Assembly: GCF_013362815.1 (NCBI RefSeq)
Contig: NZ_JABFVK010000023.1
Coordinates: 1 to 64,000 of the forward strand
Source: Hamadaea sp.
Lineage (GTDB): Bacteria; Actinomycetota; Actinomycetes; Mycobacteriales; Micromonosporaceae
Direction: 5' to 3'
DNA: 64,000 nucleotides
How positions within the stretch are numbered: position 1 is the stretch's first letter; every line of letters starts with the position of its first letter. This document shows positions 2,439 through 44,172 of the stretch, in pieces. Position numbers and translations under genes: made by a program. The notes under the pieces are model-generated. The model was not told where the DNA came from and did no database searches. It saw nothing but the letters and a program-made list of their open reading frames with translations.

Positions 2439-2630
2439 TCAGCTGCGGGCGACCTTGCCGGCCTTGATGCACGAGGTGCACACGTTCAGCTTGCGGGTCG
2501 TGCCGCCACCGGCCGGGGTGCGAACCGTCTGGATGTTGGGGTTCCAACGACGGTTGGTCCGCCGGTGCGAGAAGGACACGTTGTGGCCGAAGCCCGGCCC
2601 CTTGCCACAGACGTCGCACACGCTTGCCAC
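2439..2630 (-). CDS. rpmB: 50S ribosomal protein L28
   Basis: This 63-residue protein ([20 protein letters not shown], then [14 protein letters not shown]) is bacterial L28 of the zinc-ribbon type: CDVC near the N-terminus and VCTSC near the C-terminus can bind a zinc ion. The GTG start at 2630 is preceded by AGGAG at a spacing of 7 nt. It is a monocistronic gene upstream of and divergent from the DAK/recG genes, a common actinobacterial arrangement. Confidence 0.97.
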
Positions 2631-2811
2631 GGGATACTCCTGAGGTGGATAAACCCCGCCGCTGCGGGGACGGATCTGGACCCGCGTCGCGGGCAACCTG
2701 GCCAGGATACCTGACCGGACCGGTGCGTACCCAATCGGGCCGCCTCGGCAACCGGTGGAGCTTAGCGCAGTACGCCGCGCGCGCAGCCAGGTGGGTGTCG
2801 GGAGTCACGAC

Positions 2812-2817
2812 TAGGCT
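2812..2817 (+). promoter_or_regulatory. -10 box of leaderless DAK gene
   Basis: TAGGCT ends 7 nt before the GTG at 2825. It defines this GTG as the probable start and suggests a leaderless mRNA. Confidence 0.55.
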
Positions 2818-2824
2818 GGGCGGC

Positions 2825-4414
2825 GTGCTGGAGGTTTTGGACGCGGCGGCGGTGCGGCGCTTCGCCGAGCGGGCGGTGACCGCACTCGGTCGGCATCGGG
2901 CGGAGATCGACCAGCTAAACGTCTATCCCGTGCCCGACGGCGACACCGGCACCAACATGCACCTGACGATGGTCGCCGCCCGGGATGAGCTGGCGGTGCA
3001 CTCCGGCGAGGCGACGACAGAGCCGTCGGAGGCCGCCGGGTTACTGGCGCGCGGCGCGTTGATGGGCGCGCGGGGCAACTCAGGGGTCATCTTGGCGCAG
3101 CTGTTGCGCGGCGTCGCCGATCTGATCGCCGACGGCTCCCCGAGCGCGGTCGCCGCGGGCCTCGGAGAGGGCGCGAAGGCAGCGCGGGCCGCGGTCGCCC
3201 GTCCGGTGGAGGGGACGATCCTCAGCGTCGCCGACGCGGCGGCTCAGGCTGCGCGTGACGTCGCGCTGCGGGCGGGCTCGCTGGCCGACGTCGTGGGGGC
3301 GGCCCTGGGCAAGGCGGTCAAGGCGCTGGCGCTGACCACCGAGCAGTTGCCGGCGCTCACCGCGGCCGGAGTCGTCGACGCGGGGGGCCGGGGCCTGGTG
3401 GTGATCCTCGACGCCCTTCGCGGCGAGGTGACCGGCGAGGAGAGCGAGCTGCCCGAGGTGACCGGGGCCGCCGTGATCGGCGTCGACGCGGCTGCGGCCG
3501 CCGACGAGGCGGTCGGTCAGTTCGGCTATGAGGTGCAATACCTCCTCGACGCTCCCGAGGCCGCCGTCGAGCGGCTGCGCGGGACCCTCGACCGGCTCGG
3601 CGACTCGCTCGTCGTCGTGGGCGGACCGGAGACCTGGCGAGTCCATGTCCACGTCGCCGACGTGGGCGCCGCCATCGAAGCAGGCGTTCGGGCCGGCCGG
3701 CCGTATCAGATCGGCGTGACCGACCTCACGAAACAGGTCGCCGGGCGGCAGTGCCTGGACCCGGAGGCGCGCGGCGTGGTCGTCGTCTCCGCCGGTGACG
3801 GGCTGGACGACCTGTTCCAGGCCGAGCACACGGTGACGGTCGGGGCGAACCCGTCGACGGCGGAGTTGCTGGAGGCGATCCGGCGCGCGGCGGCCGGCCG
3901 GGTCGTGGTGCTGCCCAACGACCCCGATACGCAGGCCGTGGCCACGATGGCGGCGGGGGAGGCGTACCACGAGGGCATCAAGGTGCGAGTCGTGCCGACG
4001 AAGTCGCCCGTGCAGGCGATCGCGGCGTTGGCCGTGCGCGACCCCGCCCGCCGGTTCGAAGACGACGTCATCGCGATGGCCGAAGCCGCCGGAAAATGCC
4101 GGTACGCCGAGGTCACCCGGGCCGCCCGGGAGGCGCTGACGGTCGCCGGGCCGTGCCGCCCGGGTGACGTGATCGCGTTGGTCGAAGGCGAGGTGCACCT
4201 GATCGGCAGTGACCTGGTCCAGGTCGGCCGGGATCTGCTGGATCGCCTGCTCGGCGGCGGCGGCGAGCTCGTCACGCTGTTGCTGGGCGCGGATGCTCCG
4301 GCCGAACTGGAGCAGGTGCTCGTCGAGCATCTCGCGTCGGCGTGGCCGTTCGCCGAGGTGCAGTGCCTGTCCGGTGGCCAACCGCATTACCCGCTGATCG
4401 TGGGGGTCGAATGA
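2825..4414 (+). CDS. DAK2/DegV-like protein, fatty-acid kinase subunit A (YloV/FakA) family
   Basis: This 529-residue protein has an N-terminal DhaL/DAK2 kinase domain (about residues 10-200) with the nucleotide and magnesium motif NVYPVPDGDTGTNM and the segment GALMGARGNSGVILAQ, followed by a central domain and a C-terminal DAK1-like region. In Firmicutes the family (FakA) uses ATP to phosphorylate fatty acids held by a FakB partner; a partner is not in this window. The ATGA at 4411-4414 joins its stop to the first ATG of the 74-bp duplicated unit ahead of recG, so co-translation with recG is likely. Confidence 0.85.
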   Translation: MLEVLDAAAVRRFAERAVTALGRHRAEIDQLNVYPVPDGDTGTNMHLTMVAARDELAVHSGEATTEPSEAAGLLARGALMGARGNSGVILAQLLRGVADLIADGSPSAVAAGLGEGAKAARAAVARPVEGTILSVADAAAQAARDVALRAGSLADVVGAALGKAVKALALTTEQLPALTAAGVVDAGGRGLVVILDALRGEVTGEESELPEVTGAAVIGVDAAAAADEAVGQFGYEVQYLLDAPEAAVERLRGTLDRLGDSLVVVGGPETWRVHVHVADVGAAIEAGVRAGRPYQIGVTDLTKQVAGRQCLDPEARGVVVVSAGDGLDDLFQAEHTVTVGANPSTAELLEAIRRAAAGRVVVLPNDPDTQAVATMAAGEAYHEGIKVRVVPTKSPVQAIAALAVRDPARRFEDDVIAMAEAAGKCRYAEVTRAAREALTVAGPCRPGDVIALVEGEVHLIGSDLVQVGRDLLDRLLGGGGELVTLLLGADAPAELEQVLVEHLASAWPFAEVQCLSGGQPHYPLIVGVE

Positions 4415-4488
4415 CCGGCCGTAGGACGGGCATCGGCAGGCTCAGCCCTAGTCGTGCGAGCGCCGGCCGCAGGTCGGTGATCGCATGA
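4411..4488 (+). CDS. possible 25-aa coupled leader ORF, copy 1
   Basis: An ATG overlapping the DAK stop codon (ATGA) opens 25 codons starting MTGRRTGIGR and ending GRRSVIA, with six arginines. It stops at a TGA that overlaps the ATG of the second copy. It may be a translated relay between DAK and recG rather than a functional peptide; codon choice includes AGG and AGT, which the neighbours use little. No homologue is recognised. Confidence 0.25.
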   Translation: MTGRRTGIGRLSPSRASAGRRSVIA

Positions 4489-4558
4489 CCGGCCGTAGGA
4501 CGGGCATCGGCAGGCTCAGCCCTAGTCGTGCGAGCGCCGGCCGCAGGTCGGTGATCGC
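4411..4558 (+). repeat. perfect 74-bp tandem duplication between DAK gene and recG
   Basis: Copy 1 (4411-4484) and copy 2 (4485-4558) are identical over 74 bp, and the first five bases (ATGAC) occur a third time at the recG start. Each unit starts with ATGACC and ends with AGGTCGGTGATCGC, which holds a ribosome-binding-site-like AGGTCGGTG. The unit length is 3n+2, so every unit opens a 25-codon frame that closes at an ATGA overlapping the next ATG. Confidence 0.97.

Positions 4559-4562
<4 letters not shown>
4485..4562 (+). CDS. possible 25-aa coupled leader ORF, copy 2
   Basis: This is an exact repeat of the preceding 25-codon frame. Its TGA overlaps the ATG of recG (ATGA at 4559-4562). If ribosomes re-initiate at each junction, the duplication would alter the DAK:RecG ratio without breaking the coupling. 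Confidence 0.25.
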
Positions 4563-6775
<2,213 letters not shown>

Positions 6776-42837: not shown

Positions 42838-43046
42838 TCACAGCACTCATTCGACGGTGCTTATCGCCTGTCCGCGCGGTTTGCGGGCAGGCGACTGTTC
42901 TTTGGAATTACAGCACTGTTCGAGGTGCTTATCGCCTGTCCGTGCGGTTTGCGGGCAGGCGACTGTTCTTTGGAGTCACAGCACTGTTCGAGGTGCTTAT
43001 CGCCTGTCCGCGCGGTTTGCGGGCAGGCGATAAGCACCTCCGCGCT
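42838..43046. repeat. three tandem ~70-bp hairpin units at the 3' end of dprA
   Basis: Units start with ACAGCAC at 42840, 42910 and 42978 (periods 70 and 68). Each holds a hairpin (42864-42894, 42932-42962 and a larger one at 42990-43040) with CGCCTG/CAGGCG arms. The third hairpin has 22 paired bases with one G-U and contains the dprA stop codon (42997-42999) in its left arm. Together they form the terminator between the convergent DUF2469 and dprA genes. Confidence 0.93.
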
Positions 43047-44172
43047 CTTCTAGGAGACCCTTCGTGACCAGGGCCGGCAGCTTCGCCAGCGCGACGCGTA
43101 CGGGGATGCCGGCGATCCGGGCGATCTCGCCGGACAGCATCGGGCGATGCGTCGGGACGGCGTCCATCAAGCGGCTCTCCACCTCGTCCAGCTGATCTTC
43201 CGGGCGTTCCGGCCCGAGCACCGGCGGGGCCAGGTCGGCCCCGATCCGGCCGATCTCCTCCAGCACGTGTGCGACGTTCGCCACCGCGAGCACCTCAGGT
43301 TTGCGCAGCTCCTCGTGGCAGCCGACCGAGGTCGCCGAGGTCACCTGGCCGGGCACCGCCATGGCCGCCCGGCCGAGTTGAAGCGCCCGGTGCAGGGTCT
43401 GCCGACTGCCGCTGCGAGCGGCCGCCTCGACCATCACGGTGCCCTGGGTGAGCGCCGCGATCACCCGGTTGCGGATCAAGAACCGGAACCGTAACGGCTC
43501 ACTGCCGAGTGGCCACTCGCTCAGCACGAGTCCGGCTTCCGAGATCTGCTCGAGCAGTCCGGCATGCCCCATCGGGTACGCGCGATCGACCCCACAGGCG
43601 AGGACGGCGATCGTCGGGCCACCCGCCGCGAGGGCGCCTCGATGGGCGGCGGCGTCGATGCCGAACGCGCCTCCGGAGACCACGGCGTACCCCTTGCGGA
43701 CGAGGTTGTAGCTCAACTCGGCGGCCACGTGATCGCCGTACGGGGTGCTCGCGCGCGCTCCCACGACGGCCACCGACCGGGCCACCGTCGCGGCCAGGGG
43801 CAGCGTTCCGCGTACCCAGAGGCATTGGGGCGGGAAGGTGTCCCGGTCGACTGCCGTTCCGCCGGACAGCGTCGGGCGGGAGATCCGCGCCAGGTCGGCC
43901 AGGCGCGTACCCGGCCATTCCAGGTCTTCCGGTGTGAGCACCCGGACTCCCGCCCGGTCAGCCGCGGCCAGCTGCCGCCGGGCGAGTTCCCTGGGGTCGC
44001 CACCGGCGAGGCGGCTGCGGACGACTTCGGCAGCGGCGGCGTCACCGGCGCAGAGCCGGGTGAGCGCTCCTTCCGGGCCCTCGGTCGAGACCAGTTCGAA
44101 CAGGTCCCTCCGGCCCGGCTCCACCAGGCAACCGAGGGCGACTCGGGCCAGGCGTACGCGGTGCTCGTTCAT
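42997..44172 (-). CDS. dprA: DNA processing protein DprA
   Basis: DprA (Smf) loads RecA on incoming single-stranded DNA. The 391-residue protein has an N-terminal SAM-like region, the Rossmann core with SVAVVGARASTPYGDHVA, VSGGAFGIDAAAHRGAL and VMVEAAARSGSRQTLHRAL, and a C-terminal winged-helix (IARIAGIPVRVALAKLPALV). The ATG at 44172 overlaps the comM stop (ATGA). The last ~15 codons lie within the terminal hairpin, so coding and terminator sequence are shared. Confidence 0.95.
   Translation of the reverse strand: MNEHRVRLARVALGCLVEPGRRDLFELVSTEGPEGALTRLCAGDAAAAEVVRSRLAGGDPRELARRQLAAADRAGVRVLTPEDLEWPGTRLADLARISRPTLSGGTAVDRDTFPPQCLWVRGTLPLAATVARSVAVVGARASTPYGDHVAAELSYNLVRKGYAVVSGGAFGIDAAAHRGALAAGGPTIAVLACGVDRAYPMGHAGLLEQISEAGLVLSEWPLGSEPLRFRFLIRNRVIAALTQGTVMVEAAARSGSRQTLHRALQLGRAAMAVPGQVTSATSVGCHEELRKPEVLAVANVAHVLEEIGRIGADLAPPVLGPERPEDQLDEVESRLMDAVPTHRPMLSGEIARIAGIPVRVALAKLPALVTKGLLEERGGAYRLPANRADRR

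What the first reader, a model, noticed from the sequence alone, without database searches (positions are those of the whole stretch)
4411..4563. Tandem 74-bp duplication that builds a chain of ATGA-coupled mini-ORFs ahead of recG
Two identical 74-bp units lie between the DAK gene and recG. Because the unit is 3n+2 long and starts at an ATGA, each unit opens a 25-codon frame that ends in an ATGA overlapping the next start: DAK stop, mini-ORF 1, mini-ORF 2, recG. Each unit also carries an AGGTCGGTG ribosome-binding-site-like stretch before the next ATG. The copies are perfect, so the duplication is recent or maintained. Gain or loss of units would keep the coupling and could tune RecG expression.
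Basis: partly seen in the sequence, partly recalled or inferred. Interest (0 to 1): 0.7.

Follow-up and report, generated by a model that had tools for sequence, protein, structure and literature searches.

The report
MIRU-like translation-coupling repeat before recG
The doubled 74-base unit ahead of recG is a copy of a mobile-looking DNA repeat, found at many gene junctions in this genome and in related forms across actinomycete bacteria, that sits exactly where one gene stops and the next starts and carries a tiny in-frame reading frame, much like the MIRU repeats used to type tuberculosis strains.

Summary
Two identical 74-bp units (4411-4484, 4485-4558) lie between a DAK2/FakA-like gene and recG; each opens a 25-codon ORF ending in the ATGA that starts the next. 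But the unit is not a local oddity: it belongs to a dispersed family, 28 units at 26 sites in this Hamadaea genome, with diverged relatives in 277 of 354 Micromonosporaceae genomes and in other actinomycete families. At 24 of 26 sites it lies between a long ORF ending and a long ORF starting at its ATGA ends (chance sites 11 of 268). Relatives mostly show a single DTGA there. Phase is kept: 106 of 112 rows read have 3n length, none of these with an internal stop, although the second hairpin lies in all three phases; in Hamadaea third codon positions vary least. So phase, not peptide, seems selected. This is the design reported for mycobacterial MIRUs (review PMC12548453, passages). Best reading: a MIRU-like coupling cassette, tandemly doubled at recG. 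Translation, coupling and the mobilising enzyme are inferred, and sequence kinship with MIRUs could not be tested. Copy-number tuning of RecG is possible but untested.

The parts
4411..4484 (+). Repeat unit 1 (74 bp, from its ATGA to the base before the second ATGA)
4485..4558 (+). Repeat unit 2, identical to unit 1
4411..4488 (+). Mini-ORF 1, 25 codons + TGA, sharing ATGA with the upstream stop and with the start of mini-ORF 2
4485..4562 (+). Mini-ORF 2, 25 codons + TGA, sharing ATGA with the recG start
4411..4433 (+). Hairpin 1 of unit 1, containing the start codon of mini-ORF 1; by sequence less regular in this copy than in the family consensus
   Evidence: family consensus fold and pair counts
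4453..4487 (+). Hairpin 2 of unit 1; its 3' arm holds the SD-like GGTGAT and reaches into the AUG of mini-ORF 2
   Evidence: family consensus fold and pair counts
4485..4507 (+). Hairpin 1 of unit 2
4527..4561 (+). Hairpin 2 of unit 2; its 3' arm holds the SD-like GGTGAT and reaches into the recG AUG
4476..4481 (+). SD-like GGTGAT before mini-ORF 2
   Evidence: sequence; SD scoring
4550..4555 (+). SD-like GGTGAT before recG
   Evidence: sequence; SD scoring
2624..4414 (+). Upstream gene, DAK2 / FakA-like protein, 596 aa as listed from its first start
4559..6775 (+). recG, 738 aa

Best explanation
The two units are a tandem pair of a MIRU-like mobile repeat. The element sits at a stop/start overlap (DTGA, here ATGA) between two co-directional genes and has a DTGA at each end. 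Its body is a short ORF of 3n length. Ribosomes ending the upstream gene would re-initiate on the element's start, translate about 25 codons through two hairpins and stop at the next DTGA. The 3' hairpin carries an SD-like sequence and reaches into the next start codon, so a ribosome on the mini-ORF would open the recG start. Insertion thus leaves operon translation intact, and units can be chained. The peptide itself is probably without function. SHOWN: dispersed family, placement at stop/start junctions, relatives with the element-free junction, kept phase, conserved hairpins in Hamadaea. INFERRED: that the mini-ORFs are translated, that recG depends on them, and that the element is moved by an enzyme acting in trans.
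For: Dispersed: 24 matches of one unit in the own genome at E<=0.001; 28 sense units at 26 sites with model R1, the same 28 with R2 (where 28 was also the number scored). Placement: 24 of 26 sites have an ORF of >=100 codons ending at the 5' TGA and one of >=100 codons from the 3' ATG; for arbitrary ATGA in the window 11 of 268. In 90 wider-family copies 68 pass, against 140 of 2395 DTGA sites in the same loci (chains of units were walked through for copies only). Element-free junctions (read by eye): of 17 sites matched on both sides in G001, 13 have a single ATGA or GTGA and no element, 1 a full copy, 2 shortened copies, 1 unclear; in H. tsunoensis none of 13 has the element. Phase: 37 of 39 Hamadaea copies, 84 of 90 wider-family copies, 67 of 73 matches outside the order are 3n; 106 of 112 pooled rows, none of the 106 with an internal stop, while hairpin 2 lies in phase 0, 1, 2 in 61, 20, 22 distinct copies. 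Column shuffles give about 9.7 stop-bearing copies among 79, none seen. Structure in Hamadaea: 98.3% of cells paired; 15 cells changed on both sides against 3.6 in shuffles. SD-like match before the 3' start 5.34 nt on average, random 1.16. Base after DTGA equal at both ends in 29 of 41 Hamadaea sites, 17.9 expected.
Against: No ribosome profiling or reporter data. Sites C118 and C3 fail the junction test; C3 and C5a are 1 nt short and end at a TGA a few bases before the next start. Four of 43 aligned Hamadaea copies were left out of A1: two with damaged ends (L008, L021), one in a 75-bp, phase-broken spacing (L023 first unit), one second unit of an array (L015). In the wider set 22 of 90 fail the two-sided test. 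The number of base pairs with a two-sided change, 3, is not clearly above shuffles (41 of 500 reach it), and the structure was derived from the same sequences. In the 84-nt wider-family copies third codon positions are level with second (0.327, 0.325) and the pooled fold is weak. Copies are related, so counts are not independent. Target-duplication signals differ between taxa. Published lengths of 46 bp for the smallest MIRU and 55 and 79 bp for the fpg1 repeats do not fit the 3n+2 rule. No MIRU sequence was compared and no mobilising enzyme found.
Confidence: 0.84

Rival explanations
1. A purely local slippage duplication or assembly artefact that happens to make ATGA-linked frames, without wider meaning.
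For: The two copies are identical while the next best unit in the genome is 88% identical, so the doubling itself is local and recent.
Against: The unit stands as a single copy with the same ends at 24 of 26 sites; a second identical pair lies at C99; arrays occur in a one-contig relative.
Confidence: 0.05
2. A REP/BIME-type palindromic element moved by a Y1 (RAYT) transposase, with no link to translation.
For: Two hairpins, short size, tens of copies.
Against: No Y1_Tnp (PF01797) match in 0 of 4 Hamadaea genomes; the control rang in 5 of 14 genomes. Such an element has no reason to keep 3n length, a stop-free frame and one orientation between stop and start.
Confidence: 0.04
3. The mini-ORFs encode a functional micropeptide dispersed as a gene family.
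For: Open frame kept; SD-like sites before starts.
Against: In Hamadaea third codon positions vary least (0.112 against 0.207 and 0.220) and in the wider sets there is no clear third-position excess. The second half of the ORF is read in all three phases. No Pfam hit.
Confidence: 0.06
4. A structured RNA element (stability, processing, attenuation) for which the ORF is incidental.
For: 98.3% paired cells in Hamadaea; the two-unit region folds better than shuffles, z -3.80. One paper says MIRUs may stabilise upstream mRNA and control downstream translation (PMC7884335, one passage).
Against: No Rfam family at gathering score. Does not explain the 3n rule or DTGA ends. It may be true in addition.
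Confidence: 0.15
5. The number of tandem units is a dial for RecG level.
For: Unit number varies between sites; repeat length before M. tuberculosis fpg1 was reported to go with expression (PMC2734929).
Against: No strain variation at this site was available. Most relatives do without: 60 of 80 recG loci have the bare -4 overlap.
Confidence: 0.2

Closest known systems
Mycobacterial interspersed repetitive units (MIRU; Supply et al. 1997), e.g. senX3-regX3
   Same: 46-101 bp tandem repeats at 41 loci of M. tuberculosis H37Rv (PMC3914561, passage); said to appear mobile and to insert at start codons so that an internal ORF is coupled at -4 nt (PMC12548453, passages). senX3-regX3 units of 77 and 53 bp (PMC4213456, passages) leave remainder 2 on division by 3, as do 71, 74, 77 and 80 here.
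   Different: Found here in Hamadaea and many other actinomycetes. One paper limits MIRUs to M. leprae and the M. tuberculosis complex (PMC4213456), another speaks of many mycobacteria (PMC12548453). Other published lengths (46, and 55 and 79 bp at fpg1) do not fit the 3n+2 rule. Sequence kinship untested. DTGA as the MIRU target is recalled from the 1997 abstract, which I did not see.
REP / BIME elements with RAYT
   Same: Short dispersed hairpin elements (recalled).
   Different: No Y1 transposase in the genus; frame, orientation and junction rules.
Coupled short upstream ORF (bicistronic leader)
   Same: A short ORF delivers ribosomes to an overlapping downstream start (PMC12548453, passage).
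   Different: Here the short ORF is a dispersed repeat inside operons and can be chained.

Membership tests
MIRU | Short (46-101 bp) repeat dispersed at tens of loci | tested here: met
   74-bp units, 28 at 26 sites
MIRU | Tandem arrays at some loci | tested here: met
   recG and C99 in this genome, C721 in G002; G338
MIRU | Internal ORF overlapping its neighbours at -4 nt | tested here: met
   24 of 26 sites; frame in 37 of 39 copies
MIRU | Mobile, inserted at DTGA stop/start sites (DTGA recalled) | tested here: met
   Element-free single-DTGA junctions in 13 of 17 matched sites of G001; no element at 13 of 13 in H. tsunoensis. Movement itself not observed
MIRU | Sequence kinship with the M. 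tuberculosis MIRU consensus | not tested
   No M. tuberculosis genome was recognised among 396 genomes, so nothing was compared
REP/RAYT | Y1 transposase gene in the genome | tested here: not met
   PF01797 in 0 of 4 Hamadaea genomes
Small-protein gene family | Peptide under purifying selection | tested here: not met
   Codon-position diversity, three phases of the second half
Known Rfam family | Match at gathering score | tested here: not met
   None in 8 wider-family loci or in the window
Coupled leader ORF | Mini-ORF translation drives downstream initiation | not testable with these tools
   Needs ribosome profiling or reporters

The most novel reading that the evidence does not exclude
MIRUs are one mycobacterial twig of an actinomycete-wide superfamily of mobile coupling cassettes: selfish elements that target the four-base stop/start overlap, duplicate it, carry their own SD and a phase-locked ORF whose peptide does not matter, and so stay nearly invisible to selection inside operons. 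At some sites, recG here, tandem growth could become a translational dial. An unknown enzyme acting in trans would move them.
Probability: 0.5. Interest if true: 0.82.

Novelty: new variant of a known kind. Interest (0 to 1): 0.62.

Why it matters
MIRU loci are widely used markers, yet how they move and what they do to translation is unsettled. A family of the same design in harmless, culturable actinomycetes, with tens of copies, element-free orthologous junctions and a recent tandem doubling, makes the coupling hypothesis and the search for the mobilising enzyme testable outside pathogens. The three-phase evidence is a natural experiment: the frame is kept while the peptide changes.

Tried and rejected
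Rejected: slippage or artefact as the whole story; REP/RAYT; micropeptide family; known RNA family (one search gave two chance-level hits).

Led nowhere: of 10 paper searches, those aimed at such repeats outside mycobacteria listed nothing that I found pertinent; the library lacks most subscription journals. A search for an IS6110 end, meant to spot an M. tuberculosis genome for a direct MIRU comparison, hit 12 of 396 genomes, all 5.5-6.6 Mb, so I dropped the comparison. The pooled fold of 47 wider-family 84-nt copies gave only a weak hairpin 2 (-6.4 kcal/mol); the two-hairpin model is shown for Hamadaea only.

Limits: of the 22 wider-family copies that fail the two-sided test, 14 have an upstream frame closing within 31 codons and 3 a downstream frame under 100 codons. 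The 90 copies are the rows over 30 bits of 100; the 10 weaker rows, mostly antisense, were dropped; one element is in twice (L169, L182). The 112 rows add 9 class-level loci and 13 of the 16 mycobacterial matches (L311, L312, L315 left out; L311 has a downstream frame of only 12 codons). Phases were set by a simple motif rule. mixes sites of three Hamadaea genomes, some orthologous. In one search, base +5 shows no signal in 30 f1 copies (24, expected 24.4), where -2, -1, +6 and +9 do, partly through orthologous sites; in 22 non-f1 copies -2, D, -1 and +5 do.

Full report
What is there. Two perfect 74-bp units lie at 4411-4484 and 4485-4558. The upstream ORF 2624-4414 (DAK2 and FakA-like domains) ends with the TGA inside the first ATGA; mini-ORF 1 (4411-4488) and mini-ORF 2 (4485-4562) each have 25 codons; recG starts at 4559.

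A dispersed family. One unit as a query gave 24 matches in the own genome. Model R1, built from 39 of 43 aligned copies, gives 34 rows in this genome: 28 sense units at 26 sites and six weak antisense shadows. The same call gives 25 rows in G002 (22 sense, 3 antisense), six in G001 (two of them weak) and none in G003. The only units reported in the window are the two at recG.

Where copies sit. At 24 of 26 sites an ORF of at least 100 codons ends at the TGA of the 5' ATGA and another starts at the 3' ATG; for arbitrary ATGA in the window this holds for 11 of 268. The exceptions are C118, with damaged ends, and C3, with a damaged frame. I compared all 26 sites with loci fetched from G001 and H. 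tsunoensis (22 of the 26 were in the query; orthology rests on flank similarity, and junctions were read by eye). In G001 17 sites matched on both sides: 13 without element and with a single ATGA or GTGA, one full copy (C26), two shortened copies (recG, C27), one unclear (C82). In H. tsunoensis 13 matched, none with the element. Nine and 13 sites had no two-sided match. At recG, H. tsunoensis has a bare ATGA overlap and G001 a 43-nt shortened copy. Of 80 recG loci of named relatives, 6 had no recognisable upstream end, 60 have the recG start exactly at -4, five more have a DTGA at the upstream stop but my script chose an earlier start, and nine have a spacer; four of these spacers (two Catellatospora, two Micromonospora) look element-like by eye. 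The likely ancestral state is a DTGA overlap.

Phase, not peptide. In Hamadaea 37 of 39 copies have 3n length (75, 78 or 81 with both ATGA) and none of the 37 has an internal stop. Third codon positions vary least, 0.112 against 0.207 and 0.220; in the wider sets there is no clear third-position excess (0.282, 0.405 and 0.327 in 78-, 81- and 84-nt copies, the last level with second positions at 0.325). A generalised model R2 finds members in 277 of 354 Micromonosporaceae genomes and 28 of 44 genera (E<=0.001); in 114 of 397 genomes drawn from the order (E<=1e-4), 50 of them outside the family; in 16 of 168 drawn from the class, 14 of them outside the order; and in 8 of 297 of a genus that I take for Mycobacterium from neighbouring genes, counting the centre genome that had been chosen for its hit. 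These scans score a limited number of candidates per genome and the samples overlap. Of 90 wider-family copies 84 are 3n; of 73 matches outside the order 67 are 3n. Pooled, 106 of 112 rows are 3n and none of the 106 has an internal stop, yet among 105 distinct 3n copies hairpin 2 lies in phase 0, 1 and 2 in 61, 20 and 22, two having no motif. Within one genome (G338) copies of 78 nt read the second half in different phases (L186 and L188 against L178). Shifts have been compensated elsewhere in the element, which is hard to explain unless the ORF is translated and only its openness and phase matter. Copies are related, so I give no overall probability.

Structure and SD. In Hamadaea the consensus has two hairpins; 98.3% of cells pair (96.6% in shuffles) and 15 cells are changed on both sides (3.6 in shuffles), but the number of such pairs, 3, is reached by 41 of 500 shuffles. 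Hairpin 2 holds GGTGAT in its 3' arm and pairs two bases of the next AUG. SD-like matches average 5.34 nt before the 3' start, 4.18 before the 5' start and 1.16 at random positions. The two recG units together fold better than shuffles (z -3.80), mainly by a long helix between the two copies of hairpin 2; a prediction only.

Mobility. The base after DTGA agrees at both ends in 29 of 41 Hamadaea sites, 17.9 expected, a hint of a target duplication of five bases or more; other taxa show signals at other neighbouring positions. No Y1 transposase was found in the genus. The mobilising enzyme is unknown.

The known. A 2025 review (PMC12548453, passages) says MIRUs appear mobile, insert at start codons and couple an internal ORF at -4 nt, citing Supply 1997, which I did not see. 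PMC4213456 (passages) gives 77 and 53 bp units and limits MIRUs to M. leprae and the M. tuberculosis complex, whereas the review says many mycobacteria. PMC3914561 (passage) gives 46-101 bp at 41 loci. Lengths of 77 and 53 fit the 3n+2 rule; 46, and the 55 and 79 bp of the fpg1 repeats (PMC2734929), do not. No MIRU sequence could be compared. I therefore call this a MIRU-like element by design and leave descent open.

Verdict. Observation confirmed; interpretation partly supported and enlarged. Every step from translation onward needs the bench.

Noticed in passing
window 42838-43059: Tandem array of 68-bp units (three copies, the last only 63% alike over its whole length) with a strong hairpin; the last copy forms a 22-nt inverted repeat. 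No Rfam match in the window.
   Followed up: partly
G002 contigs C802, C130, C140, C521: Contigs of the Hamadaea MAG begin or end at or near copies of the element or, for C802, at the recG start, so the repeat may fragment the assembly.
   Followed up: no
L008 (G000:C118:16370-16446): A copy without ATGA ends and without junction context, perhaps decaying.
   Followed up: no
L063, L076, L081, L115, upstream of recG: Element-like spacers, by eye, at the same junction in Catellatospora and Micromonospora, perhaps separate insertions at this site.
   Followed up: partly
G338:C1, 828056-828281 and 6370324-6370696: Arrays of three and five diverged units in a one-contig genome of another genus.
   Followed up: partly
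G403 (family f13): 24 matches to model R2 in a 5.4-Mb genome outside Micromonosporaceae.
   Followed up: no
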